Below, in pieces: positions 10,917 to 64,000 of a DNA stretch of 64,000 bases. Source of the stretch: Halorubrum halophilum (lineage in GTDB: Archaea > Halobacteriota > Halobacteria > Halobacteriales > Haloferacaceae); assembly GCF_000739595.1 (NCBI RefSeq), contig NZ_BBJP01000014.1, positions 1 to 64,000 on the forward strand. The letters run 5' to 3'. The notes beneath the pieces were generated by a model. It was not told the origin of the DNA and made no database searches. It saw only the letters and a program-made list of their open reading frames with translations. How positions within the stretch are numbered: the first letter of the stretch is position 1; every line of letters begins with the position of its first letter. Made by a program: the position numbers and the translations under genes.

Positions 10917-11382
10917 CTTGATCGATAGTGGGAGTGGGTATAGCACGTTGGGAGTGAGGTTGTTTATAAGCGATCGAGTAGTGTTGCTGTCGGCTGTTTA
11001 TAAGTGGTTGATGGTGGGTCGGCGGTGAACACCTCCAAAGCCCCAGCCGACGAGGCGGGCGCACGCTCGCTGCGCTCCTCGGTCGCTCGCAGTGCTCGCT
11101 CTCTGCGGTGCTTGCGTCGCCTGCGCCCGCCTCGTCGGCTGCCCCTTTGAGTCCCGCCCGCAACCGCACAGCGCCTCACGCCTCCCCAGCCTCGTCGGTG
11201 GTCCTCCGCTTCGCTCCGGACCACCGACTCCCTCGCACCGTCGGTGAGCGGCCCAGAGGGCCGCTCACCGGGGCGCGCCACCGCCTCGTTCATTTATAAG
11301 CGATCGTCGCTGTCACTCGTGGCCTTTTAAATGCTGGATCGCCACCACCGATCTGCAACACCCACTCCCGCCATCGATCGTC
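10917..11382 (+). repeat. Structured repeat element, copy 1 (full length)
   Basis: A roughly 465-bp element bounded by imperfect inverted repeats: left 10920-10945 and right 11354-11379, 22 of 26 matching, core GGGAGTGGGT. Inside, in order: TTTATAAG boxes at 10963 and 10997 (34 apart); conserved ACCTCCAAAGCCCCAGCC at 11031; an 18-bp perfect stem (11046-11063 with 11122-11139); conserved GGCTGCCCCTTTGAGTCCC; hairpin B (11194-11204 with 11218-11228); hairpin C (12-bp perfect stem 11243-11254 with 11258-11269, loop AGA); then TTTATAAG at 11293 and TTTTAAAT at 11325 (32 apart). No convincing ORF is inside. Three further copies in the window share this order. It could be a non-autonomous mobile element, a structured RNA gene, or both. 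Confidence 0.85.
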
Positions 11383-11424: not shown

Positions 11425-11444
11425 CGTTGAGAATTTCGACAGAG
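11425..11444 (+). repeat. Copy 2 of the shared upstream motif
   Basis: Matches 10601-10620 at 17 of 20 positions; core TTTCGACAG. It lies about 80 bases before the small membrane gene at 11524. Confidence 0.5.
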
Positions 11445-11523
11445 CCGCCCTTCTCGATGTCAACGCTGAGGATTTCGAGAACGTCCAAAAACGCTATACC
11501 GGTCCCGAAAGACCGCTCGATCC

Positions 11524-17102: not shown

Positions 17103-17176
17103 CCGCCCTTAGCTCAGCCTGGTAGAGCAGTCGACTGTAGATCGACTTGTCCCCCGTTCAATTCGGGGAGGGCGGA
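17103..17176 (+). tRNA. tRNA-Tyr (anticodon GTA)
   Basis: 74-nt cloverleaf: acceptor CCGCCCT (17103-17109) pairs with AGGGCGG (17169-17175), discriminator A at 17176. D arm contains AGCTCAGCCTGGTAGAGC. Anticodon stem GTCGA/TCGAC with loop CTGTAGA places GTA at 17137-17139. T arm is CCCCCGTTCAATTCGGGG. The C1-G72 pair is the archaeal tRNA-Tyr identity pair. CCA is not encoded. No intron is seen. Confidence 0.97.
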
Positions 17177-18767: not shown

Positions 18768-18820
18768 GCGAGTGACGTACACGCGGCCGGGTTAAAAACG
18801 TACGTGGCGGTTCGGAGGCG

Positions 18821-19510
18821 GTGTTCAGATAAGGATTGAAAAGTGAGGCGGTACGTTTTCAAAGTGACTTATGCCCGAAAACGACCGCCTCAGCGGCTGT
18901 TTAGACGAGATCAACTTAGAGTTTGTGGAGCGAGAAGCAACACCGCGGCTGTTGATGAAGCTCAGTATTCAGCTTCATTTAGCTGAATTATCGCTTTCAA
19001 ATACTGTCTCGTTTCTTGATGTTTTTGGTGTTGATAGGGTTCGATCTACCGTTCATAACTGGGTTCATAAGGCCGATCTACAGCCGGAATCTGGTCGGTG
19101 CCCGAATCACGTTGCGGTCGATGAAACGGTGATTCAGCTTGACGATGAACAATATTGGCTGTACGCCGCGGTCGATCCCGATTCAAACGATTTACTCCAT
19201 ACAAAGCTTGAACCGGCAAGAACGAACGTGATCGCAGATCAGTTTTTCGCGGAGCTCCGCGAAAAACACGATGTAGATGACGCGATCTTTCTCGTTGATG
19301 GCGCGGTTCCACTTCACCGAGCCTGTGACAAACATGGCCTCGATTTCAGATACGAACGACATGGAAATCGGAACAGCGTAGAACGTGTCTTTCGTGAGGT
19401 AAAACGCAGAACTACCAGTTTCTCAAACTGTTTCAGCAACGCCGAGGCAGAAACTGCTAACGAGTGGTTGAGATCGTTCGCTTTCGCATGGAATCAGCTT
19501 ATCTGAACAC
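18821..19510 (+). mobile_element. IS6-family insertion sequence (690 bp)
   Basis: Perfect 13-bp terminal inverted repeats: GTGTTCAGATAAG at 18821-18833 and its reverse complement at 19498-19510, enclosing one transposase gene. The interior is visibly richer in A/T than the surroundings. The flanks (GGAGGCG and TACCGGTT) show no matching 8-bp target duplication, so the copy may have undergone flank rearrangement or cointegrate resolution. Ends and size match haloarchaeal IS6 elements. Confidence 0.93.
18871..19506 (+). CDS. IS6-family transposase
   Basis: 211 residues, DDE transposase of short IS6 type. An N-terminal HTH region (residues about 40-70, VSFLDVFGVDRVRSTVHNWVHKA) precedes the catalytic core. 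DDE residues: Asp in HVAVDETVIQLDDEQYWLYAAVD, Asp in IFLVDGAVPLHRAC, Glu in RNSVERVFREVKRRT. The frame is uninterrupted and ends inside the right terminal repeat, so the element may be active. Codon use is more A/T-rich than its neighbours, consistent with transfer. Confidence 0.95.
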   Translation: MPENDRLSGCLDEINLEFVEREATPRLLMKLSIQLHLAELSLSNTVSFLDVFGVDRVRSTVHNWVHKADLQPESGRCPNHVAVDETVIQLDDEQYWLYAAVDPDSNDLLHTKLEPARTNVIADQFFAELREKHDVDDAIFLVDGAVPLHRACDKHGLDFRYERHGNRNSVERVFREVKRRTTSFSNCFSNAEAETANEWLRSFAFAWNQLI

Positions 19511-19531
19511 TACCGGTTCGGATCGCGTCGT

Positions 19532-19547
19532 TCCCCCGCGCGGGGGA
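19532..19547. terminator. Perfect GC hairpin downstream of tfb
   Basis: TCCCCCGCGCGGGGGA is a complete palindrome between the IS end and the stop of the minus-strand TFB gene. It could halt transcription from tfb or be incidental; no T tract follows. Confidence 0.35.
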
Positions 19548-20851: not shown

Positions 20852-21514
20852 TCAGGAGCGACGACGCGCGACGAGTGCGACCGCGATCAGCGCGATGAAC
20901 GCGACAGCGACGTCGAACCCGGGCGCCTCGTCGCCGCTTCCGTCTTCGTCGCTCCCGCCGCCTCCGTTCATCTCGTCGTCGCCGTCGGACATGTTGTCGT
21001 CGGACATGTCGTCGCCAGCGTTCTCACCATCCTCGCCCTCCATGTTCTCGGTGTCCTCGCCGCTCTCGACGGTCAGATCGGCGGGCGACATCACCGGCCC
21101 GCCCGCGGCCGCGTACGGCCCGTCCTCGTTGCCCTCACTGCTGGGGAAGTCGTACGCCTCGTTGTCGTTCGTGTCGCGGTGCGCCATAGCGAACACCGTG
21201 TCGTCGTTCTGCAGGGGGTCGTCGAGCCGGACGCGGACGTCCTCGTGGACGCCCGCCTCCAGGTACTCGGTGGTGCCGCGGATGGAGTCGAACACGGCGC
21301 CGTCCGCGAGCGAGGAGTCGTGAACCGTCACGAACCCGCCGTCGGGAACGTGGACCTCGTCGACGACGACCGTGTTCCCACCGGACGTGCCGTCGGCGAA
21401 GCTCACGCTCGCCTCGTTGGTACCGCTCTGTGCCGCGACCGCGCCAGCCGCGCCGGCGACCGCCGACACGACTACCGCGACCGTTATCGCCAATGTCAAT
21501 GCGCTGTTGCGCAT
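20852..21514 (-). CDS. Secreted PGF-CTERM surface protein with DUF7282-like domain
   Basis: 220 residues. Signal peptide MRNSALTLAITVAVVVSAVAGAAGAVAAQ. The central domain (about 35-145) reads ASVSFADGTSGGNTVVVDEV, VTVHDSSLADGAVFDSIRG and ARMA-like FAMAHRDTNDNEAYDF; this pattern recurs in haloarchaeal surface proteins grouped as DUF7282. A very acidic Asp/Glu/Met/Asn linker follows, ending in EAPGFDVAVAFIALIAVALVARRRS, a PGF-CTERM sorting signal. The mature protein is likely lipid-anchored. Function unknown. TATA box about 20-28 bases upstream. Confidence 0.88.
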   Translation of the reverse strand: MRNSALTLAITVAVVVSAVAGAAGAVAAQSGTNEASVSFADGTSGGNTVVVDEVHVPDGGFVTVHDSSLADGAVFDSIRGTTEYLEAGVHEDVRVRLDDPLQNDDTVFAMAHRDTNDNEAYDFPSSEGNEDGPYAAAGGPVMSPADLTVESGEDTENMEGEDGENAGDDMSDDNMSDGDDEMNGGGGSDEDGSGDEAPGFDVAVAFIALIAVALVARRRS

Positions 21515-21642: not shown

Positions 21643-22104
21643 TGATCGACTGCGGGAGTGGGTATTGCAGATCGGTAACGGTTATCGATTATTTAAACAA
21701 CGGGAAGCAACGGTGACGATCGCTTATAAACGAACAATGCGGTGGCGCGCCCCGGTGAGCGGCCCGGAGGGCCGCGAACCGACGGTGCGAGGGAGTCGGT
21801 CGTCCGGAGCAACGCGGAGGGCGACCGACGAGGCTGGGGAGGCGTGAGGCGCCGTGCGGTTGCGGGCGGTGGGACTCAAAGGGGCAGTCGCGAGGACGGC
21901 GCAGGCGACGTAAGCACCACAAGGAGCGAGTGAAACGAGCGACTGAGGAGCACAGCGAGCGTGCGCCGTCCTCGGCGGCTGGGGCTTTGGAAGTGTTCAC
22001 CGAAGGGTCGTCGATCGCTTATAAACACTCAACGGCAACACCACTCATTCACTTATAAATAACCGATCAGCCGAATAGACACACGCACTCCCGCTCTCGT
22101 TCAC
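21643..22104 (-). repeat. Structured repeat element, copy 2 (full length, reverse orientation)
   Basis: About 460 bp. The plus-strand left end GATCGACTGCGGGAGTGGGT (21644-21663) and the right end around 22085-22095 (GCACTCCCGCT) form the inverted termini; the right one is degraded. On the minus strand: TTTATAAG boxes start at 22059 and 22025 (34 apart), conserved AACACTTCCAAAGCCCCAGCC, a 13-bp perfect stem (21891-21903 with 21962-21974), conserved CTGCCCCTTTGAGTCCC, hairpins B and C, then TTTATAAG from 21730 and GTTTAAAT from 21698 (32 apart). The stem sequence differs from copy 1 but remains paired. It sits upstream of the PGF-CTERM gene on the same strand. Confidence 0.85.
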
Positions 22105-22156
22105 GGATGTCGAGAGAAACACCGCCACGCTTACCTCAACAGCGAGTTCGATCGAG

Positions 22157-24105: not shown

Positions 24106-24318
24106 ATGTCCCCGATACTACTGCAGGGAGGAGGAGCCGGCGCGCTCTTTCTCCTGTTCGGCCTCCTCATGCTGCTCGTACAGCTCGGCATCATCGTGTG
24201 GATCTACTCCGACGCCCAACAGCGGAGCGACCAGCCGGCGTTCCTGTGGGCGATCGTGGCGTTCCTCGCGCCGCTGCTGGGGCTCGTGTTGTACCTGATC
24301 CTCGGTCGGAATCGGTAG
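24106..24318 (+). CDS. Small membrane protein, phospholipase D-nuclease N-terminal-like
   Basis: 70 residues: TM1 ALFLLFGLLMLLVQLGIIVWIY, a YSDAQQRSDQPAF turn, TM2 LWAIVAFLAPLLGLVLYLIL and basic end GRNR. The two-helix hairpin with 'YxDAxxR' turn matches the PLDc_N (cardiolipin synthase N-terminal) type. No catalytic HKD motif, so it is not itself an enzyme. It is convergent with the exchanger gene. Confidence 0.78.
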   Translation: MSPILLQGGGAGALFLLFGLLMLLVQLGIIVWIYSDAQQRSDQPAFLWAIVAFLAPLLGLVLYLILGRNR

Positions 24319-24339
24319 AAGGCGGCGGGAAATCACCGC

Positions 24340-25371
24340 TCAAACCCCTCTGAGGACAGTCGTCGCCCCGACCGTCTCCGCGACCACCCACGCGACGAAC
24401 AAGAGGTACGCGATCAACAGGACTGAGGACTCCCGCTCGGTGAGCGACAGGTCTGTCCGGAGCGTCGCGAACAGGAGCACGGTCGCCGCGGTGAGCACGC
24501 CCAGCATCGGGACGGCGGTGGAGAAGTTCACGTCGACGCTCCCGACGATCAACACCCCCACCGGGATGGCGACGAGCAGGTCGAACGTGTTCGACCCCAG
24601 CACGTTCCCGAGGCTCGTGCCTCCACGCCCCTCGCGAGCGGTCCGGACGCTCACGAGGGCGTCCGGGAGGCTTGTCGCCGCCGCGACGATCGTGACCCCG
24701 GCGAGGAACTCCGGGACGCCGAACGCCGTCCCGAGCGACTCGACCGACCCGACCAGCCGCTCGACGGCGACGCCGATGAGGAGCAGGCCGGCCGCGAGCC
24801 TCCCCCACTCGCGGCGGGCGTCCACGCCCTCTCGCACTCGCTCGACCGCCGCGTCGCCGACGTCCTCGTACTGGATGAACAGGTAGAGCCCGTACAGCGC
24901 GAGCGGGATCGCGGCGACGGGTCGGGTTAGCTCCCCGACGATCGGGTCCGACGAAACGGGGTAGTAGATGACGGCGAGCGCGAAGGTGACGACCAGCGCC
25001 GACACCGCGATCATGTAGAACTGCGCCTCCTTGTACACGATCGCGCGGCTGGTCTCGAGGTCGCCCTCGGCGCCGAACTCCGATAGGGCGGGGATGACGA
25101 GGACGTTGAAGATCGCGGAGCCGACGAGCGCGCCCACGCCCATGTCGAAGACGCCGGTGATCGCGGTGACGACGACGCTCGCGAACTCCGGGAAGCTCGA
25201 CCCGACGGCGACCACGATCGACCCCTGCACCACCGCCGGCAGGCCGTAGTACCCCGAGAGCGTCTCTGCGGCCTCCTCCAGCCAGCCGCTCCCGACCCAG
25301 ATGGCGCCGGTCGCGGCGGCGATCACGGCGACGTGGAGGACCGAGCCGTCCGCGAGGCTCCAGCCGAGCAT
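24340..25371 (-). CDS. Sodium/calcium exchanger family (CaCA) membrane protein
   Basis: 343 residues, about ten TM segments in two inverted halves. Alpha-1 repeat IVVAVGSSFPEFASVVVTA (Glu near residue 63) followed by GVGALVGSAIFNVLVIPA; alpha-2 repeat VTIVAAATSLPDALVSV followed by LGNVLGSNTFDLLVAIPVG. These define the CaCA exchanger family. The acidic residue of alpha-2 is Asp (SLPDA) rather than the more usual Glu, which may alter ion preference. It begins 3 bases after the malQ stop, so it is probably in the malQ operon. Confidence 0.93.
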   Translation of the reverse strand: MLGWSLADGSVLHVAVIAAATGAIWVGSGWLEEAAETLSGYYGLPAVVQGSIVVAVGSSFPEFASVVVTAITGVFDMGVGALVGSAIFNVLVIPALSEFGAEGDLETSRAIVYKEAQFYMIAVSALVVTFALAVIYYPVSSDPIVGELTRPVAAIPLALYGLYLFIQYEDVGDAAVERVREGVDARREWGRLAAGLLLIGVAVERLVGSVESLGTAFGVPEFLAGVTIVAAATSLPDALVSVRTAREGRGGTSLGNVLGSNTFDLLVAIPVGVLIVGSVDVNFSTAVPMLGVLTAATVLLFATLRTDLSLTERESSVLLIAYLLFVAWVVAETVGATTVLRGV

Positions 25372-25374
25372 CGG

Positions 25375-26865
25375 CTATCTGACGTGTTTGCCCGCGAGCT
25401 CCCACAGCCGGTCCGCGATCGCGTCGTCGAGCGCCCCGCTTCGGACGCGCCACTCCCAGTTGCCGTCGATCGTCCCCGGCTCGTTGAACCGCGCCTCGCT
25501 CCCGAGGCCGAGCAGGTCCTGTGCCGTCGTCATCGCCAGCACCGCCTCCGAGGCCCACACCTCGTCGATGATCTCCCACTCGGTCGGGCGGTCGCCGTCG
25601 GCGCCGACGTTGTACCGGAAGCACTCGCGCTGACGCTCCGGGAGGTCCTCGAAGTAGCCGACCCACGTGTCCGTGTCGTGGGTCGAGGTGTAGCCGACGA
25701 CGCCCTCGGGATAGTGCATCGGCTGGTACTCGTCACCCTCCGCGCACCAGTCGGCGTACTGCGGGACGCGCATCCCGGGGAAGCCGAACTCCGCCATCAG
25801 CTCGTCCATCTCGGGCTCCTCGAACCCGAGGTCCTCGGCGATGAAGGGCGCCTGTCCGAGCTCGCGCTCCACGGCCTCGAACAGGTCGCGTCCCGGTCCC
25901 TGGCGCCACTCGCCGGCGGCCGGGTCGTCGCGGTCGGCCGGGATCGCCCAGTACTTGGCGAACCCGAGGAAGTGGTCGAGCCGGGCCACGTCGGCGAGTT
26001 CGAACAGCCGCCGGAACCGGGCGATCCACCAGTCGTACTCTCGCTCCGCGAGCCGGCCCCAGTCGTAGACGGGGTTCCCCCAGCGCTGCCCGTCGTCGCC
26101 GGCGTTCGGCGGCACTCCCGCCACCGCCGCGGGGCGGTTGTCGTCGTCGAGCCAGAACGCCTCGGGGTTCGCCCACACGTCCGCGGAGTCGAGCGCGACG
26201 TAGATGGGCACGTCCCCGACGATCGACACGCCCTCCTCCTCGGCGACCGCCCGGAGGTCGCGCCACTGCCGGTCGAAGGTCCACTGGAGGAACTCGCGGA
26301 ACCGGACCTCGGCCGCGTGGCGCTCGCGGGCGTCGGCGAGCGCCTCGGAATCTCGCGTCCGGAGCGGGTCGGGCCACTCGGTCCACGTGTCCTCGTCTCT
26401 CGCGTCCGAGAGCGCTCGGAACAGCGCGTAGTTGTCGAGCCAGGGCTCGCGTTCGCGGAAGGCGTCGAGTTCGTCTTCCGCTTCGGGCGCGTCTGACTCG
26501 TCGAACCGCTCGAAGGCGGTCCGCAACAGCGGCTCCTTGTACTCGCGGACCGCCTCGTAATCGACCCGGTCGTCCGGGAAGTCGGGGATCGGTTCGAGGT
26601 CGGACTCGTCGAGCCAGCCGTCGTCGACGAGCCCGTCGAGGTCGATCAGGAGTGGGTTGCCGGCGAACGCGGAGGGCGACTGGTAGGGTGACTCCGCAGC
26701 CCCGTCAGTCGTCGGTCCGAGCGGGCAGATCTGCCAGTGTCGGACGTCGGCGTCGCCGAGGAAGGAGAGGAAGGCCTTCGCCCCGTCGCCGAGGTCGCCG
26801 ATACCGTGTCTCCCCGGGAGCGAGGTGACGTGACAGAACACGCCGCCGGAGCGGTCGAGTCGCAT
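25375..26865 (-). CDS. malQ: 4-alpha-glucanotransferase (GH77)
   Basis: 496 residues, typical for GH77. The N-terminus has SLPGRHGIGDLGDGAKAFL and CPLGPTTDGAAESPYQSPS. The catalytic nucleophile Asp is in VARLDHFLGF, the acid/base Glu in FIAEDLGF, and the transition-state Asp in STHDTDTWVGYF. The enzyme disproportionates maltooligosaccharides in the cytoplasm. It lies between a GH13 amylase upstream (60-base gap) and the exchanger downstream (3-base gap), all on the minus strand. ATG 26865 (MRLDRSGGVFCH) fits the family; a start at 26886 would add seven residues. Confidence 0.96.
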   Translation of the reverse strand: MRLDRSGGVFCHVTSLPGRHGIGDLGDGAKAFLSFLGDADVRHWQICPLGPTTDGAAESPYQSPSAFAGNPLLIDLDGLVDDGWLDESDLEPIPDFPDDRVDYEAVREYKEPLLRTAFERFDESDAPEAEDELDAFREREPWLDNYALFRALSDARDEDTWTEWPDPLRTRDSEALADARERHAAEVRFREFLQWTFDRQWRDLRAVAEEEGVSIVGDVPIYVALDSADVWANPEAFWLDDDNRPAAVAGVPPNAGDDGQRWGNPVYDWGRLAEREYDWWIARFRRLFELADVARLDHFLGFAKYWAIPADRDDPAAGEWRQGPGRDLFEAVERELGQAPFIAEDLGFEEPEMDELMAEFGFPGMRVPQYADWCAEGDEYQPMHYPEGVVGYTSTHDTDTWVGYFEDLPERQRECFRYNVGADGDRPTEWEIIDEVWASEAVLAMTTAQDLLGLGSEARFNEPGTIDGNWEWRVRSGALDDAIADRLWELAGKHVR

Positions 26866-26925
26866 GCGTCCCCCTGCGATCCCCACCGACTCAAGCGTTG
26901 CGTCCGGTCGGTTTCGGCGACGGTT

Positions 26926-29037
26926 TCAGCGCCCGGTCTCTCGGACGACGGCCACGTCGTCGACGCGGATCCGCTCGGTCCCGTCGCCGTCGACGACCAG
27001 GCAGGGCTCGTCGGTCACGAGGTTCCGATTGCCGTGGTCGACGCCGACCGAGACGCTCGCCGGCTCGGGCGCGAAGTTGAGGACGACGACCAGCGACTCC
27101 CCGTCGTCGCGCCGGCGGAACGCCACCACGTCGTTCGGGTGAACCTCCCCGCTGGCGACGATCGGTCGCTCCGAGAGGTCGCCGCTGGCGACGTGGTACG
27201 CCACCCGATCGAGGTCGCCGTCGGGCCCGAGCGCGGAGTGGTCGGCGCGGACCGCGAGCAGCCGCTCGTAGCGATCCCGGACTCCCTCCCGGGCGTGCTC
27301 CCACGCGATCGCGTCGCGGCGACCGCGCTGCCCGATCTCTTGGCCCGCGTAGATCATCGGAACGCCCGGCAGGGTGACGATCGCCGCCCCCGCCGCGGCC
27401 GCGGCGGCGTCGCCGCACTCGACGCGGTAGCGTGTCTCGTCGTGGTTCTCGATGTACTGGAGGAACTCGGCGTGGTCCGGGAAGCCGATCTCGGCGCGCT
27501 GGTCGATCGCGTCCAACAGCGACGCGGCGGGGTCGACGCCCCGACCGATCTGGCGGAGCTGGAAGTACAGCGTCGCGTCGAAGTGTACGTCGAACATCCC
27601 CTCGTGGAAGCCGGGGATGTACGGGATCGTCTCGTCCATCAGCAGGAACTCCCGGTCGATGTCCTTCACCCGGTCACGGAGCTCGCGCCAGAAGGAGTCG
27701 GGCACGGCCCACGCCATGTCGCACCGGAACCCGTCGACGAGCGGCGCCCACTCGTCGATCACGTCGAGGAGGAACCGCCGGACGTCGAGGTTCGCGTGAT
27801 TCAGGTTCGCGATCAGCTCCCAGTCGAAGTACGTTCCCGGCTCGCCGGACTCCTGCCACTCGTAGCGGTCTCGGTACGGGGAGTCCGGGTTCTCGTAGGC
27901 GTCTTGGAACCACTCGTGGTCGCGCGCGGTGTGGTTGGCGACGAAGTCGAACAGCACGCGCATCCCGTGGTCGTGGGCCGTCTCGACCAGCGCTTCGTAG
28001 TCGTCGCGGTCGCCGAGGTCGTCGGCCACGTCGAAGAAGTCGGTGATGTTGTAGCCGTGCGGCTTCCCGTCGTGCTTGAGGATGGGGGTCAGCCACAGGG
28101 TGTCGACGCCCAGATCCGCGATCGTCGGGATCCGCTCCGCGATCGCGTCGAACGTCTCGCCCCGTTTCTCGTCTCCGCTGTCACCGTCGCTCCCCTCGGC
28201 GAACGTCCGGACGTACACCTCGTAGACTGTCGCGTCTTCCGTCCATACCGGCGGATCGTTGAGCCGTACGATCTCGAAGTCGGGGCTGTCCGGGCCCCCG
28301 ACGCGTCCGTCCCCGTCGTCGTCGCCTCGACCTGCGCCGTCGCCGCTCCGATCGACCGCGACCGCGTCGGCGACGCTGACGCGCGGCTCCTGCCCGGGCT
28401 CTGCGGCGACCGCGACCCCGTGGACCCGCAGGCGGTCCGCGACCGCGGTCGCGGGCACCCGGAGCGCTCGCCCGTCGTCGCTGGTTTCGAGCGCGTCGCG
28501 CGGGCTCGTCCGCCCCTCCGCGACCGCGCTCGCGACGTCGCGGTCGTCGACGACGAACCTCACTCGCAGGTCGTCCGCGTCGACCGAGGAGTGCGGGTTC
28601 GGCGTCGCGGTCGCGCGGACGACGATTTCGGACTCCGCGTCGTTTCCGCCCTCGTCCACGCTCGCGTCCAATCGCACGCGCGGCCGCCCGACGCTCTCGT
28701 CGCTGCGCGGCTCGGCGTAGTCGACCGGGGCGTCGCCGGCGGTTCGGTCGCGGATCGCCGTCCCGCTTCCGCCCTCCACGTCCACGCCCTCGTAGCTCGA
28801 CGGGAACGCGCGGACCGTCAGCAGGTGGTCACCGTCCGGCGCGTCGAGTCCGATCCGATAGCGACCGGGGACGTCTGGGGTGAACTCGGTCACTGGGTCG
28901 GTTCCGACGGTCGCTTCGCTGTCGGGGGGCGCGTCGACGACGCGCCACGCGTAGGATCCGCTCGGGTCCGGATCTCGAGGCGCGAGCTCCGTGGTCTCGC
29001 CGGTCGCGAGGAATCTCGGGGGTCCGGGATGGTGCAT
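26926..29037 (-). CDS. GH13 alpha-amylase family enzyme with beta-sandwich N-terminus
   Basis: 703 residues, no signal peptide, so cytoplasmic. The first 260 residues form immunoglobulin-like modules (SYAWRVVDAPPDSEATVGTD, then FTPDVPGRYRIGLDAPDGDH) plus an acidic linker. The GH13 barrel begins at VYEVYVRTFAEG. Catalytic residues: Asp in DGFRCDMAW (about 430), Glu in FLLMDETIP (about 468), Asp in YIENHDETR (about 530). The C-terminal beta domain ends at VVRETGR. Likely hydrolyses maltodextrins; specificity cannot be read from sequence. First gene of an amylase-malQ-exchanger unit, divergent from the glucoamylase (144-base gap). Confidence 0.93.
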   Translation of the reverse strand: MHHPGPPRFLATGETTELAPRDPDPSGSYAWRVVDAPPDSEATVGTDPVTEFTPDVPGRYRIGLDAPDGDHLLTVRAFPSSYEGVDVEGGSGTAIRDRTAGDAPVDYAEPRSDESVGRPRVRLDASVDEGGNDAESEIVVRATATPNPHSSVDADDLRVRFVVDDRDVASAVAEGRTSPRDALETSDDGRALRVPATAVADRLRVHGVAVAAEPGQEPRVSVADAVAVDRSGDGAGRGDDDGDGRVGGPDSPDFEIVRLNDPPVWTEDATVYEVYVRTFAEGSDGDSGDEKRGETFDAIAERIPTIADLGVDTLWLTPILKHDGKPHGYNITDFFDVADDLGDRDDYEALVETAHDHGMRVLFDFVANHTARDHEWFQDAYENPDSPYRDRYEWQESGEPGTYFDWELIANLNHANLDVRRFLLDVIDEWAPLVDGFRCDMAWAVPDSFWRELRDRVKDIDREFLLMDETIPYIPGFHEGMFDVHFDATLYFQLRQIGRGVDPAASLLDAIDQRAEIGFPDHAEFLQYIENHDETRYRVECGDAAAAAAGAAIVTLPGVPMIYAGQEIGQRGRRDAIAWEHAREGVRDRYERLLAVRADHSALGPDGDLDRVAYHVASGDLSERPIVASGEVHPNDVVAFRRRDDGESLVVVLNFAPEPASVSVGVDHGNRNLVTDEPCLVVDGDGTERIRVDDVAVVRETGR

Positions 29038-29181
29038 GTCACCCACATCGGCACCCGGGGTCTTCGTTGTTGCTCCTGTGTCACCCCGGCTGGCCGGACG
29101 CCGGTGAATCGAGCGTCTGCGGCGCGGATCGAAGACGCCCGCGTTCGTCAAGGCTTTCACCTCGGGAATCGCAGGGAACCC

Positions 29182-32100
29182 ATGCGACTGCGAACCGCTC
29201 TCACGGAACACGAACGTCGGCGCGGCGAGCGCTACCCGGCGGAGCGTCCCACCACCGCCGGCGCGTTCACGGGCGACGACGGTCGGTTGGTCCACGTCGG
29301 ACCGAACGGGACCGTCCACGACTGTTCGTACTCCCTATCCGGAGTCGGCGGCGCCGACCGGCTCCGCATGGGGATCACGGCCGGGCGGGGCGTCCGCTGG
29401 TTCGACGACCTGACCACGACCCGCCAACACTACGACGGCGACACGCCCCTCGTCGAGACCGAGTACGACGCCGGCCGCTACACCATCCACCAGTTCGATC
29501 TGGTGGTGAGCGACACCCATCTCACTCACGTCGAGCTGCGCGGCGCCCCGCCGGCGGGCGCGGAACTGGTCGCGGCCTGCGCGTTCTCGCCCGACATGGT
29601 CGAGGGGCGCGTCGGCAACCTCGTCCACGAGGAGGCCGGCCCCGAGGGCGGGAGCGTCGTCGAGGTGTATCACCGCACCGAACACGACTTCCTCACCGCC
29701 TCCACGGGGCTGTCGGCGGCGCACGGCCAGCGGCTCCGCACCGTCTCCGAGCTGCTCGGCGAGAGCGGCGACGGGTTCCCGCACCGCGGCGAGATCGACC
29801 AGCGCGAGGACTCCCGGCTCACCCCGGACGTGGTCGTCCGCGCCCCGTTCGAGCGCGACGGCCGGACCGAGCGCGTCACGCTCGCGAGCCGCGCCGTCCT
29901 CGACAGGCGGGAGACCCGCGAGACGGTCGACGACGCCAAGGACGCGGTTTCCGACGGTCCGGACCGCCAGCGCCGGATCGAGGAGCTGTCGCGGATCGCG
30001 ACCGCCTACCCCGACGCCGACGACCTCCGCGACGCGGCCGAGGGCCGTGGCCCGACCGTCCCCGACGACGTGCCGCGCCGGTCGGTGGTCGCGAGCGATC
30101 TCCGCGCGCTCGACCTTCTCACCGCCGAGTCCGGCGCGCGGATCGCCGCCCCCGAGTTCGACCCGTTCTACTCCACCTCCGGCGGGTACGGCTACACCTG
30201 GTTCCGCGACGAGGCGGAGACGTCGCTGGCCCTGCTCGGCGCGAGCGACGTGCTCGGCCTCGACGCCGACGAGGAGCTCCTCGCGACCGCCTCCTTCTTC
30301 TGTCGGACGCAGGACGCCGACGGCTCGTGGCCCCACCGGGTGTGGGCCGACTCCGGCAAGGTCGCGCCCGGCTGGGCGAACGCTCGGATCGAGGGCGCGA
30401 ACGCCACCGCCGGCCCGAACGATCAGCTCGATCAGCCCGCGTCGGTCGTCGCCTTCCTCGCCCGGCTTCGTCGGACCACCGACCTCCCCCCGGAGTGGCG
30501 CGACCGCGTCGACGACACCATCGTCGACGCCCTCGCGTTCCTCCGCGAGACGACCGAGGACGACGGCCTCCCGCGCCGGTGCCAGAACTGCTGGGAGAAC
30601 GCGCTCGGCCGCTTTACTCACACCGGCGCGACGTACCTCCGCGCGTTCGCCGCCGCGGCACGCGCGCCGCTTCCCGACGAGGTGCGGGCCGACGCCGCCG
30701 AGGCGGCCGACGCCGCTCTCGCCGGGCTGCACGACCGGTGGAACCCGGACACGGAGCGGTTCCCGCAGCGCGCGAGCGCGGAGAGCCGCGACGACCGGCC
30801 GGACGCCAGCACGTTCGCGCTCGCGAGCGCCGCGACCGAGTACGCGGGACTGCGCGACGAGCGCGAGGCGATCGGTACCGACGGCGGGTCGGCTCCCACC
30901 GCGGCCGCCGCGGTCGACTTCGACGCCTTCCTCGACCGCGTGACGACCCACGTGCTGACGACGGTCGGCGATCTCCGCCGCGAGACCGCCGACGTGGAGG
31001 GGCTCGTCAGGTTCACCGGCGACGACTGGCGCACCGCAGAGCAGGGCGGCGCGAAGGTGTGGTCGATCGCGACGCTGTGGGGGTCGACCGCCGCCGCCGA
31101 GCTCGGCGGGCTCGTCCGCGAGCGTGGCGGGGACCCCGCCGACCTGTTCGGCGCCGCGCGCGACCTCTACGCGCTGTGCGAGCCCGACGGCCCGTTCGTC
31201 AACGACGCCGGGCTCATCGCCGAGCAGGCGTTCGACGACGGGGATCTCGACGGCGCGACCCCGATCGCGTGGTCGCACGCCCTCCGGATCGACGCGACTG
31301 TGACGCTCGCGCGACACGGGGCGCTCCCGGTCCCGCACGACGAGCCGCGGGGGCCCGACGAGGCGCCCCACTGGACGACCGGCCGGAAGTTCGGCGTCGG
31401 CACGCCCGCCGACCACGAGGCCGACGACCCGGTACCGGTCTGGTTCACCCTGACCGAGGGCGCGCTCACCGAGGCCCGGTTCCCGCGGATCGACGTGATG
31501 AACGTCCGGACGTTCGACTTCCTCGTCGCCAACCCGGAGACGGGGTACACGGTCCGGACCTTCGACGAGACGAGCCACGTGACCGCGACGGAGACGGTCG
31601 AGCGGACCACGGAGCCGACCGTCGACGACGCCCTCGCGTACACGCAGACGATCCGCGAGACGGGCGACGGCCACGGGCACAGCTGGACGCTCACGGTCGA
31701 GTACGCGGTCGACACCGACGGCGACGCGATCCTCGCCGACGTGTCGTTCGAGGGGAGCCGCGAGTACGACGTGTACGCCCTCGTCGACACCACGGTCACG
31801 AACGTCGGGACGAACGACCGCGGCGACCGGGTTGGCGACTCGGACGGGTACCACCTGCTCGCGCGCAACGACGACGCGGCCGAGCGCGATCCAGGCAAGC
31901 TCGTCGACGACGAGGGCGACTCCTTCGAGGTCGCGCTCGCGCTCGACAGCGCCGGTGGCTTCGACTGGGCGAGCGCCCTCGTGGCCGGCGGCCACGAGGC
32001 CGACGCGCTGTTCGCCGACGGGGAGCGCGGCGAGGGGATCGCGGAGGCGGCCGGAAACGTCGTCCTCGCCGGGCTCGTCGGGAGCGGCACCGAAATCTCG

Positions 32101-33957
32101 GACGCGGTCGCGCTCGGGTTCGCCGAGCAGGCGGACACCGCCGCGGCGCTGGGCGAGGCGCGCGGCGCCATCTCGCGGGGGTTCGACGCCGTCTCCGAGT
32201 CGTACGTCGAGACGTGGCGCGGGTGGCTCGCGGACCGGAAGTTCCCCGCCTCCGTGACCGGCGACGCGGAGTTGGAGACGCAGTACCGGTTCGCGCTGAT
32301 GACGCTCGCGGCCGTCGAGGACAAACGGCACGACGGCGCGGGGATCGCCAGCCCCTCGGTCCCGTGGGGCGAGACCGAGTACGCCGCCGAGGACCGCGGC
32401 TACGGCTACAACTTCGTCTGGTCGCGCGACCTCTACCAGGTGTTCACCGCGCTGATCGAGGTCGGCGAGGTCAAGCGCGGCGCCGACGCGCTCGCCTACC
32501 TCTACAACACCCAGCAGGACGACGACGGGTTCCTCCCGCAGAACACCTACATCGACGGGCGCACGCGGTGGGGCGGCGAGCAGATGGACAACATCGCCTT
32601 CCCCTCGGTGATGGCCTGGCAGCTGTACGAACACGGGATCGCGCCCGGCGAGGCCGACTACACCTACGGTCAGGTCCGACAATCGCTCGGCTACATCGCC
32701 GCCAACGGCCCCGAGACGGCCCAAGAGCGCTGGGAGGAGGAGGCCGGCTTCTCGCCGTCGAGCATCGCCGCCGAGATCGCGGGGCTCGTCTGCGGGGCCG
32801 CGCTCGCGGTCGCCGAGGCCGACCGGATCGAGGCGGGCGACGGCTCCGCCGGCTCCGGGTCGGCGGCCGACCCCGACTCGCTCCGCGCCGACGCCCTCGC
32901 GTGGCTCGCGCTGGCGGACGATTGGACGGCCCGCGTCGAGGAGTGGTGCGCGACGAACACGGGCACCGAGCGACACGGTGAGACCCCCTACTACGTGCGG
33001 GTCACGGCCGACGGCGACCCCGAGGCCGGCCGCCCGCGGACGATCGCCAACGACGGCCCCACCTACGACGAGCGGGAGATCGTCGACGGCGGCTTCCTCG
33101 AACTGGTCCGGCTCGGCGTGAAGCCCGCCGACGACGACGCGGTCCGGAACTCCGTGTCGGTCGTCGACGACTCGATCCGCGTCGATACCCCGTACGGCCC
33201 CGCGTGGTACCGGTACGTCGGCGACGCGTACGGGGAGATCGCGCGCGGCGACCCCGGCGGCCCGTGGGCCGGGACCGGCGACGGCCGCGGGCGCCTCTGG
33301 CCGATCTTCACGGGCGAGCGCGGCGAGTACGAGCTGCGCGCCCGCGCCGACGGCCCCGACGCTTTCGGCGGCACCGACGAGGACGCCCTCGAACCCGACG
33401 CCCTCTTGGAGACGATGGCCGGGTTCGGCAACTCCGGGCGGATGCTCCCCGAGCAGGTGTGGGACCGCGAGCACCCGACCGACTACGGCTGGGAGTTCGG
33501 CGAGGGCACCGGGGGGGCGACCCCCCTCGCGTGGTCGATGGCCGGCTTCATCCGACTCGCGCACGGGGTCGACGCCGGCGAACCGGTCGAGACGCCCACG
33601 GTCGTCCGCGACCGCTACGTCGAGCGCGACGGCTCGGCCGCGCCGGAGTTGACGGCGACCGCGGAGTACGTCGACGACGCCCTCGTCGTCGCCGGCGTGA
33701 CCGACGCGGACACGGTCGCGGTGTACACGCCCGACGGCTCCGAGCTCGCGACGCCGGAAGGCGGCGAGTACGAGTTCCGCCTCGACCCCGCGCTCGACGC
33801 GAAGACGATCATCGTCGCCGCCGCGAACACTGACGGGGTTGGGGACGGTGATGGCGACGCGGAGGGCGAAGACGCGGACAACGAGACGGTCGACGCCGAG
33901 ACGATCCTCGGCGAGTTCTCGGGCGCCGGCACCGCGGTCGAGCGGCTCCGGCTGTAG
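29182..33957 (+). CDS. Giant glucoamylase with two GH15-type modules
   Basis: 1591 residues, about twice a normal glucoamylase. Module 1 (about 1-700): beta-sandwich, then (alpha/alpha)6 barrel with GYGYTWFRDEAETSLALLG near 335 and CWENALGRFTHTG near 469. Module 2 (about 732-1530): glucodextranase-type N domain (TGRKFGVGTPADHEADDPVPVW), barrel motif YGYNFVWSRDLYQVF near 1071, GGEQMDNIAFPSVMAW, and the general-base region MLPEQVWDREHPTDYGWEFG near 1422. The C-terminal module (about 1470-1591) resembles glucodextranase C and ends acidic. No signal peptide, so intracellular glucose release from maltodextrins is likely. Only a weak TATA-like GCTTTCACC precedes ATG 29182. Confidence 0.92.
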   Translation: MRLRTALTEHERRRGERYPAERPTTAGAFTGDDGRLVHVGPNGTVHDCSYSLSGVGGADRLRMGITAGRGVRWFDDLTTTRQHYDGDTPLVETEYDAGRYTIHQFDLVVSDTHLTHVELRGAPPAGAELVAACAFSPDMVEGRVGNLVHEEAGPEGGSVVEVYHRTEHDFLTASTGLSAAHGQRLRTVSELLGESGDGFPHRGEIDQREDSRLTPDVVVRAPFERDGRTERVTLASRAVLDRRETRETVDDAKDAVSDGPDRQRRIEELSRIATAYPDADDLRDAAEGRGPTVPDDVPRRSVVASDLRALDLLTAESGARIAAPEFDPFYSTSGGYGYTWFRDEAETSLALLGASDVLGLDADEELLATASFFCRTQDADGSWPHRVWADSGKVAPGWANARIEGANATAGPNDQLDQPASVVAFLARLRRTTDLPPEWRDRVDDTIVDALAFLRETTEDDGLPRRCQNCWENALGRFTHTGATYLRAFAAAARAPLPDEVRADAAEAADAALAGLHDRWNPDTERFPQRASAESRDDRPDASTFALASAATEYAGLRDEREAIGTDGGSAPTAAAAVDFDAFLDRVTTHVLTTVGDLRRETADVEGLVRFTGDDWRTAEQGGAKVWSIATLWGSTAAAELGGLVRERGGDPADLFGAARDLYALCEPDGPFVNDAGLIAEQAFDDGDLDGATPIAWSHALRIDATVTLARHGALPVPHDEPRGPDEAPHWTTGRKFGVGTPADHEADDPVPVWFTLTEGALTEARFPRIDVMNVRTFDFLVANPETGYTVRTFDETSHVTATETVERTTEPTVDDALAYTQTIRETGDGHGHSWTLTVEYAVDTDGDAILADVSFEGSREYDVYALVDTTVTNVGTNDRGDRVGDSDGYHLLARNDDAAERDPGKLVDDEGDSFEVALALDSAGGFDWASALVAGGHEADALFADGERGEGIAEAAGNVVLAGLVGSGTEISDAVALGFAEQADTAAALGEARGAISRGFDAVSESYVETWRGWLADRKFPASVTGDAELETQYRFALMTLAAVEDKRHDGAGIASPSVPWGETEYAAEDRGYGYNFVWSRDLYQVFTALIEVGEVKRGADALAYLYNTQQDDDGFLPQNTYIDGRTRWGGEQMDNIAFPSVMAWQLYEHGIAPGEADYTYGQVRQSLGYIAANGPETAQERWEEEAGFSPSSIAAEIAGLVCGAALAVAEADRIEAGDGSAGSGSAADPDSLRADALAWLALADDWTARVEEWCATNTGTERHGETPYYVRVTADGDPEAGRPRTIANDGPTYDEREIVDGGFLELVRLGVKPADDDAVRNSVSVVDDSIRVDTPYGPAWYRYVGDAYGEIARGDPGGPWAGTGDGRGRLWPIFTGERGEYELRARADGPDAFGGTDEDALEPDALLETMAGFGNSGRMLPEQVWDREHPTDYGWEFGEGTGGATPLAWSMAGFIRLAHGVDAGEPVETPTVVRDRYVERDGSAAPELTATAEYVDDALVVAGVTDADTVAVYTPDGSELATPEGGEYEFRLDPALDAKTIIVAAANTDGVGDGDGDAEGEDADNETVDAETILGEFSGAGTAVERLRL

Positions 33958-34014: not shown

Positions 34015-34432
34015 TTGATCGATAGCGGGAGTACGTGAATCTCTGTGGTGGATCGGTTGTTTATAAGCGATCGACGACGCTGCGGTGACGATCTCCAAAG
34101 CCCCAGCCGTGAGGACGGCGCACGCTCGCTGCGGTCCTCAGTCACTCACTCCGTTCGCTCCTTGCGGTCCTTACGTCGCCTGCGCCGTCCTCACGGCTGC
34201 CCCTTTGAGTCCCACCCGACCGCACCGCACAGCCTCACACCTCCCCAGCCTCGTCGCTGGCGGCTGGCGCCGCCAGCGACTCCCTCGCGCGGTGCTGCTC
34301 GGCCACGAAGCGGCCTCGCAGGCACGCGCCACCGCCATCATTTATAAGCAACCGTTGTGCTCGCTCTCGGCTATTTAAATATCGCATCACTAGCGACGAA
34401 CTGCAACACCTACCCCCGCTATCGCCCGCCGC
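34015..34432 (+). repeat. Structured repeat element, copy 3 (full length)
   Basis: About 415 bp. Termini: GATCGATAGCGGGAGTACGT at 34017 and the inverted CTGCAACACCTACCCCCGCT at 34401-34420. Internal order matches copy 1: TTTATAAG at 34060 (the first of the paired boxes is missing), TCTCCAAAGCCCCAGCC at 34092-34108, a 17-bp perfect stem (34106-34122 with 34181-34197), GGCTGCCCCTTTGAGTCCC, hairpin B with a different but perfect 12-bp stem (34253-34264 with 34269-34280), a weak hairpin C, then TTTATAAG at 34341 and ATTTAAAT at 34373 (32 apart). It lies between a plus-strand gene and a convergent minus-strand gene. Confidence 0.85.
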
Positions 34433-63673: not shown

Positions 63674-63703
63674 GGAAAGGCGGTCTCAGCGCTTTGGCGA
63701 CGG

Positions 63704-63712
63704 CATTTTTAA
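63704..63712 (+). terminator. T-tract after lrp
   Basis: CATTTTTAA, a T5 run about 30 bases after the lrp stop. It also overlaps the edge of repeat element copy 4. Confidence 0.4.
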
Positions 63713-64000
63713 ACAGAATTGGTGTTGCGACGACCGTTTATAAACGGATCTGCGGTGCGGTTGCGGTGGGTGGGGCTCAAAGGGGCAGTCGTGATCCCCG
63801 CGAGCAACGCGAGCGGGGGCACGGGAGACGAAGTCTCCCGGAGAGACGAAGCCCGCTGTAGCAAGCACCGCAGCGAGGGAGCGACAGCGACCGAGCGAGG
63901 AGCGCAGCAAAGCGCGCGAGTCGTCGCGACTGGGGCTTTGGAGGTGTTCACCAGGATGTCGGCAGCGACCACTTATAAATAAACCACAGAAACGCGCAAT
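63705..64000 (-). repeat. Structured repeat element, copy 4 (short form, cut by window end)
   Basis: On the minus strand from the window edge: TTTATAAG starting at 63979, GGTGAACACCTCCAAAGCCCCAG (63930-63952), a stem-loop region between 63920 and 63785 with new sequence (AGTCG/CGACT closing), then CTGCCCCTTTGAG at 63776-63788. It then goes directly to a TTTATAAA box (63737-63744) and GTTTAAAA (63707-63714), skipping the region that carries hairpins B and C in other copies. No terminal inverted repeat is visible on the lrp side. So this is a deletion variant or a separate subtype. Confidence 0.8.

What the first reader, a model, noticed from the sequence alone, without database searches (positions are those of the whole stretch)
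10917..11382. A ~465-bp structured element repeated four times (10917, 21643 reverse, 34015, 63705 reverse)
Four copies share an invariant order: tandem TTTATAAG boxes, the string CTCCAAAGCCCCAGCC, a long variable stem, GGCTGCCCCTTTGAGTCCC, two smaller hairpins, two more A/T boxes, and (in three copies) inverted termini with core GGGAGTGGGT. None encodes a credible protein. This is neither an ordinary intergenic repeat nor a recognised IS. The inverted ends suggest a MITE-like mobile unit, while the internal architecture suggests a transcribed structured RNA. I do not recognise it as a named family, but I could not search.
Basis: partly seen in the sequence, partly recalled or inferred. Interest (0 to 1): 0.82.

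Follow-up and report, generated by a model that had tools for sequence, protein, structure and literature searches.

The report
Order-wide haloarchaeal mobile DNA-hairpin repeat
The four repeats are copies of a non-coding, hairpin-forming DNA element that sits between genes in tens to nearly two hundred places per genome in most Halorubrum species examined, with relatives in much of the salt-loving archaea; its hairpins are rebuilt as perfect DNA palindromes while one mismatched core motif is kept, so it looks like an undescribed family of transposase-free mobile repeats rather than an RNA gene.

Summary
Three copies are complete; the fourth (63.7-63.98 kb) has hairpin 1 but no termini and no recognisable hairpins 2/3. 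The genome has 139 sites of the P2 motif, against 0 for the reversed control. I collected 93 unique hairpin copies; none overlaps a called gene and 43 of 91 lie between convergent genes. Hairpin 1 has a strict foot, CAAAG-CCC-CAGCC...GGCTG-CCC-CTTTG, around stem arms that differ between copies yet stay Watson-Crick complementary. G-U is no commoner than A-C (7 vs 17), as expected for a palindrome maintained as DNA, not RNA. The same hairpin, with the foot pair swapped to G-C, recurs in other haloarchaeal families. Class A copies (38, including copies 1-3) have inverted termini, often lie between decayed ends of a separate cargo-carrying MITE and show insertion polymorphism with compact empty sites. 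Class B copies (55) lack termini and often keep their position between species. I found no transposase with these termini, no link to IS605, IS6 or resident Y1 transposases, no Rfam match and no description in the searchable papers. Best reading: an undescribed family of non-autonomous mobile DNA-hairpin repeats. Mobilising enzyme and host function are unknown.

The parts
10918..11379 (+). copy 1, class A, whole unit between the inner inverted termini
10918..10945 (+). left inner terminal repeat TTGATCGATAGTGGGAGTGGGTATAGCA
10963..10970 (+). left A/T box 1 TTTATAAG
10997..11004 (+). left A/T box 2 TTTATAAG, about 30 bp before P1
11036..11048 (+). P1, 5' foot of hairpin 1: CAAAG-CCC-CAGCC
11036..11149 (+). 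hairpin 1: conserved foot with CCC/CCC internal loop, variable self-complementary arms, semi-conserved inner loop
11137..11155 (+). P2, 3' foot of hairpin 1 plus tail: GGCTGCCCCTTTGAGTCCC
11195..11227 (+). hairpin 2, stem sequence unrelated between copies but palindromic, flanked by CTCCCCAGCCTCG and CTCCCTCGC
11242..11270 (+). hairpin 3 CGGTGAGCGGCCC...GGGCCGCTCACCG
11272..11284 (+). P3, conserved GGCGCGCCACCGC
11293..11300 (+). right A/T box TTTATAAG
11354..11379 (-). right inner terminal repeat
11429..11446 (-). decayed outer end (Y type) GGCTCTGTCGAAATTCTC of the surrounding MITE, 72 bp outside the inner terminus
21643..22112 (-). copy 2, class A
34015..34429 (+). copy 3, class A with one left box missing; occupied site shared with three close relatives
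63700..63980 (-). copy 4, no termini found, hairpins 2/3 not recognisable
24311..24340 (.). site without an element in this genome that holds a class A copy in relatives G004 and G011

Best explanation
It is a family of non-coding, transposase-free mobile DNA repeats built around a DNA hairpin with a conserved foot and a conserved C-rich mismatched loop. Shown: in the home genome 93 collected copies lie outside called genes, enriched between convergent genes; the hairpin recurs across Halobacteria; arms are complementary but not conserved; class A copies have inverted termini, occupied/empty site polymorphism and decayed ends of a second MITE around them; class B copies lack termini and are positionally stable at the sites compared. 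Inferred: the foot and CCC/CCC loop are what a recombinase or host protein recognises in extruded or single-stranded DNA; the A/T boxes help the flanks melt; template switching and gene conversion rebuild arms as perfect palindromes and shuffle or invert stems; class A spreads as passenger of, or targeted insert into, the MITE with ends GGCTCTGTTGAAATCCTC; copies persist mainly where they disturb no promoter. The mobilising enzyme is not identified.
For: Copy number and control; 93 copies outside called genes, convergent 43/91 against 9/51 window gaps, Fisher p 5e-4; arms paired 79% against 54% when arms are shuffled among copies, 64 distinct arms in 91 copies; CCC/CCC loop kept in 151/158, WC 1067, G-U 7, A-C 17; foot pair C-G in 157/158 Halorubrum copies and G-C in 33/33 from other groups; order-wide sites, 188/293 genomes with almost no reversed-control hits; empty/occupied sites and a core-deleted remnant; fixed inner termini at -108; outer X/Y ends above the 99% control level in 24 of 67 scorable class A ends, 22 of them in fixed register, class B 2/110; solo X/Y elements with perfect 8-bp duplications; inverted loops; palindrome-corrected copies L079 and L145; no match in 2.9 million viral contigs or in phage records.
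Against: No transposase with the inner termini was found. No target duplication could be fixed for the hairpin unit itself. Occupied sites carry extra flanking sequence relative to empty ones, so exact excision is not shown. Class B positions are conserved between species, which could also mean host function. Strong order-wide conservation of foot motifs is more than a dead repeat needs.
Confidence: 0.6

Rival explanations
1. Host-beneficial intergenic DNA site: the hairpins act as a bidirectional barrier between convergent genes (transcription or supercoil insulator, REP/BIME-like), which keeps the foot motifs conserved and class B copies in place.
For: Enrichment between convergent genes, conserved positions of class B copies among Halorubrum species, conserved motifs across the order.
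Against: Copy number varies widely within the genus (8 to 186 P2 sites), 105 of 293 sampled Halobacteria have none, and sites are empty in close relatives, so no single copy is needed; avoidance of promoters explains convergent enrichment without function.
Confidence: 0.22
2. A family of small structured RNAs: the TTTATAAG boxes are promoters and the hairpins form in an RNA of about 250 nt.
For: A TATA-like box lies about 30 bp before P1; stems covary; a PATE in a Halorubrum lacusprofundi virus is strongly expressed (PMC10544981).
Against: No G-U excess on either strand, inverted loops, unrelated stems in orthologous copies, no credible Rfam hit.
Confidence: 0.1
3. PATE/IS200-IS605 derivative: deletion remnant of an IS605-type transposon, moved in trans by a Y1 transposase.
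For: Palindromes, no coding capacity, high copy number and heterogeneity resemble the PATEs of Haloquadratum (PMC3119063).
Against: None of the three Y1 loci of the genome resembles the element; several high-copy genomes have no Y1 match (G138 84 sites, G018 94, G077 56, G265 43, G058 36).
Confidence: 0.08

Closest known systems
PATEs of Haloquadratum walsbyi (PMC3119063) and the PATE of HRTV-DL1 (PMC10544981)
   Same: Non-coding, palindromic, high-copy, heterogeneous haloarchaeal repeats of a few hundred bp
   Different: PATEs have near-terminal palindromes related to IS605 ends and no inverted termini; here the palindromes are internal, no IS605 similarity was found, and class A has inverted termini. 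Copy 1 has no match among phage records.
SMR-A elements of Haloquadratum (PMC3119063)
   Same: Inverted termini not linked to a known transposase, no target duplication found, too short to code, nested in or around other mobile elements
   Different: SMRs of one type are commonly >95% identical; this family diverges to 70-85% and carries an order-wide hairpin. Sequence relation not tested.
REP/REPIN/BIME elements of bacteria
   Same: Works like them: intergenic hairpins with a conserved foot, up to about 190 copies per genome, alternative complementary stems
   Different: Foot is SAAAG-CCC / CCC-CTTTS rather than GTAG, units are about ten times longer, and no resident Y1/RAYT is required
Haloarchaeal MITE with 18-bp TIR GGCTCTGTTGAAATCCTC (X/Y ends)
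   Same: Its decayed ends flank many class A copies in fixed register
   Different: Solo X/Y elements are about 300 bp or longer, lack the hairpin module and carry small genes

Membership tests
MITE (TIR-bounded, non-autonomous) | Terminal inverted repeats | tested here: met
   Met for class A (38 of 93 copies have at least one, 29 both; control 1 in 682 scans), not for class B
MITE (TIR-bounded, non-autonomous) | Termini shared with an autonomous transposon | tested here: not met
   All inner-terminus hits examined belong to the element family and no pair encloses a transposase; the IS6-type IS in the window has TIR GTGTTCAGATAAG
MITE (TIR-bounded, non-autonomous) | Target-site duplication | tested here: inconclusive
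   Solo X/Y elements show perfect 8-bp duplications; the three class A copies with both outer ends above threshold do not
MITE (TIR-bounded, non-autonomous) | Insertion polymorphism at orthologous sites | tested here: met
   Three sites in the window region
PATE / IS200-IS605 | Near-terminal palindromes similar to IS605 ends | tested here: not met
   No similarity to the three Y1 transposase loci; TnpB-only elements not tested
REPIN / RAYT system | GTAG/GGAG foot | tested here: not met
   Foot is CAAAG or GAAAG with a CCC loop
REPIN / RAYT system | Associated Y1 tyrosine transposase | tested here: not met
   Absent from several high-copy, near-complete genomes
Structured RNA family | Match to a curated family | tested here: not met
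   Only the tRNA at gathering threshold; weak matches far below gathering scores
Structured RNA family | RNA-type covariation (G-U tolerated on one strand) | tested here: not met
   G-U 7 vs A-C 17 among 1112 pairs
SMR-A of Haloquadratum | Sequence homology to HqIRS42/43/55 | not tested
   Their sequences were not fetched

The most novel reading that the evidence does not exclude
A haloarchaeal element class recognised as an extruded DNA hairpin: an order-wide motif (SAAAG-CCC-stem-CCC-CTTTS) is selected as a mismatched cruciform and moved or bound by an unknown enzyme, while the arms evolve freely under palindrome correction; class A shows it hitching onto a cargo-carrying MITE.
Probability: 0.25. 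Interest if true: 0.8.

Novelty: new variant of a known kind. Interest (0 to 1): 0.6.

Why it matters
If right, much of the Halobacteria carries an undescribed intergenic DNA-hairpin family whose copies give a natural record of how palindromes are rebuilt, inverted and exchanged in polyploid archaea, and whose conserved mismatched foot points to an unknown hairpin-recognising enzyme. It also matters practically: covariation in these repeats would be mistaken for RNA structure.

Tried and rejected
Phage and viral origin: no match in phage records or in 2.9 million viral contigs. IS605/IS200 origin: no similarity to the three TnpA loci. RAYT/Y1 dependence: Y1 absent from several high-copy genomes. 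IS6-family parent for the outer TIR: 30 IS6-type loci fetched; only scattered matches to the outer TIR, one pair (L388) around a degenerate transposase, and the window's own copy has GTGTTCAGATAAG. Named RNA family: none. tRNA/rRNA-linked repeat: the only tRNA is at 17103, far from the copies. Empty-site test at copy 1 failed because the downstream neighbourhood is not syntenic. Paper searches by motif text and by topic found no description.

Full report
Observation. The four copies exist with the stated order of motifs. Copy 1 spans 10918-11379 (+), copy 2 about 21643-22112 (-), copy 3 about 34015-34429 (+) and copy 4 about 63700-63980 (-). Copies 1-3 are complete, apart from one missing left box in copy 3. 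Copy 4 has hairpin 1 with its foot but no termini and no recognisable hairpins 2 and 3. In the home genome (3.68 Mb, 103 contigs) blastn with copy 1 gives 78 pieces, with only 40 of 221 candidates scored; the P2 motif has 139 sites against 0 for the reversed pattern. I collected 93 unique copies with both feet, a lower bound that is biased toward copies with a well-kept P1.

Context. With a simple codon-usage gene caller of my own none of the 93 copies overlaps a called gene; 43 lie between convergent genes, 38 in tandem gaps (19 in each orientation) and 10 between divergent genes. In the window 9 of 51 gaps are convergent, Fisher p 5e-4. Orientation relative to tandem genes is even, so this is not a 3'-UTR element of a gene.

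Anatomy. Alignment of all copies gives: A/T boxes TTTATAAG, GGTGAACACC, foot P1 CTCCAAAGCCCCAGCC, stem, foot P2 GGCTGCCCCTTTGAGTCCCACCC, CCTCACGCCTCCCCAGCCTCG, hairpin 2, CTCCCTCGC, hairpin 3, P3 GGCGCGCGCCACCGCA, and an A/T box. The foot pairs as CAAAG:CTTTG and CAGCC:GGCTG around an unpaired CCC/CCC, kept in 151 of 158 copies. The arms above it take all four Watson-Crick pairs; paired fraction 0.79 against 0.54 (maximum 0.59) when arms are shuffled among copies. Hairpin 2 is filled by unrelated palindromes in different copies. Some copies have 2-3 tandem 51-57 bp leader units, each with an A/T box and P1.

DNA or RNA. In the outer 8 bp of the arms of 139 copies there are 1067 Watson-Crick pairs, 7 G-U, 17 A-C and 21 other mismatches. 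An RNA stem would tolerate G-U on the transcribed strand; here neither strand shows it. Loops occur inverted (L080, L082, L100; relative G031 at the copy 2 site), and orthologous copies carry different but self-complementary stems. A few copies (L079, L145) have lost the CCC/CCC loop by becoming a perfect palindrome, so correction happens and the loop is normally kept, presumably by selection. This points to DNA-level maintenance. It does not exclude transcription.

Distribution. All 34 same-genus genomes match; P2 sites range from 8 to 186 in the 19 of the genus sampled. A degenerate P2 pattern hits 188 of 293 Halobacteria genomes, with only a handful of reversed-control hits in all; by my tally 58 genomes outside the genus, in 10 family groups, have 10 or more. 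Named carriers include Halorussus, Haladaptatus and Haloarcula marismortui pNG500. Outside the genus the foot pair is G-C (33 of 33), in Halorubrum C-G (157 of 158), a compensatory difference with the loop unchanged; it may be one or few evolutionary events and counts as such. Viral contigs have no P2 match and phage records none for copy 1; one Halorubrum plasmid record matches copy 1.

Two classes and mobility. Class A (38 copies) has inverted termini TTGATCGATAGCGGGAGTRGGTATAGC at -108 from P1 in most copies; class B (55) has none. At copy 3 the genomes G014, G004 and G011 are occupied, while G062, G029, G031, G017, G002, G005 and G059 have a short intergenic gap. At copy 2 G029 and G031 are occupied, G062 and G017 empty, and G004 keeps termini and boxes without the hairpins. 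A site at 24311-24340 is empty here and occupied in G004 and G011. The occupied sites bring roughly 35-90 bp of further sequence on each side. That sequence matches the ends of a separate MITE with TIR GGCTCTGTTGAAATCCTC in 24 of 67 scorable class A ends (22 in the register -70 to -75) above the 99% control level, against 2 of 110 class B ends. Solo copies of that MITE are widespread on haloarchaeal plasmids (63 records), show perfect 8-bp duplications in three cases read directly (AAGAACTC in L411, TTCCAAGT in L409, GACGGAGA in L410) and carry small genes, once a restriction endonuclease. Whether the hairpin unit is passenger of this MITE or inserts into it is open. No inner-terminus pair encloses a transposase. 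Class B copies often sit at the same place in other species; that sample was fetched by the motif and is biased toward presence.

Comparison. PATEs and SMRs of Haloquadratum (PMC3119063) are the nearest described haloarchaeal categories, REP/REPINs the nearest by way of working. PATE membership fails on IS605 similarity as far as tested; REPIN membership fails on foot and Y1 transposase. SMR-A remains possible for class A but was not tested by sequence. A 2025 REP survey of bacteria and archaea (PMC12306157) lists no haloarchaeon in the strain table read. Text searches found no paper with these motifs.

Verdict. A real, large, order-wide family of intergenic DNA-hairpin repeats, mobile at least in class A, not shown to be an RNA, new as a family as far as could be searched, of a known general kind.

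Noticed in passing
Haloarchaeal plasmids, e.g. L408 2198-3574, L409 1800-2447, L410 1800-2199, L411 1500-1807: An order-wide MITE with 18-bp TIR GGCTCTGTTGAAATCCTC, distinct X and Y subterminal ends, 8-bp duplications and varied small cargo genes (in L408 a restriction endonuclease).
   Followed up: partly
18811-19533: IS6-type insertion (transposase ORF 18871-19506, TIR GTGTTCAGATAAG) absent at the orthologous place in G031, G062, G017 and G004.
   Followed up: partly
L067, L072, L085, L088, L150 inside hairpin 1: Arrays of short palindromes of differing sequence with recurring linkers (e.g. TCATCAGAACGC..GCGTTCTGATTGGCTCACGAGAGC..GCTCTCGTGAACG) nested inside the loop of hairpin 1.
   Followed up: no
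26737-33957: 2406-aa ORF whose open length varies from about 1350 to 2420 aa in relatives, which suggests intein presence/absence.
   Followed up: no
20852-21469: The gene next to copy 2 matches several tandem domains in relatives, so its domain repeat number appears to vary.
   Followed up: no
L339, L342, L359, L366 (other families): Outside Halorubrum hairpin 1 often has a second inner type with conserved ATATCC...GGATAGNGG; its meaning is unknown.
   Followed up: no
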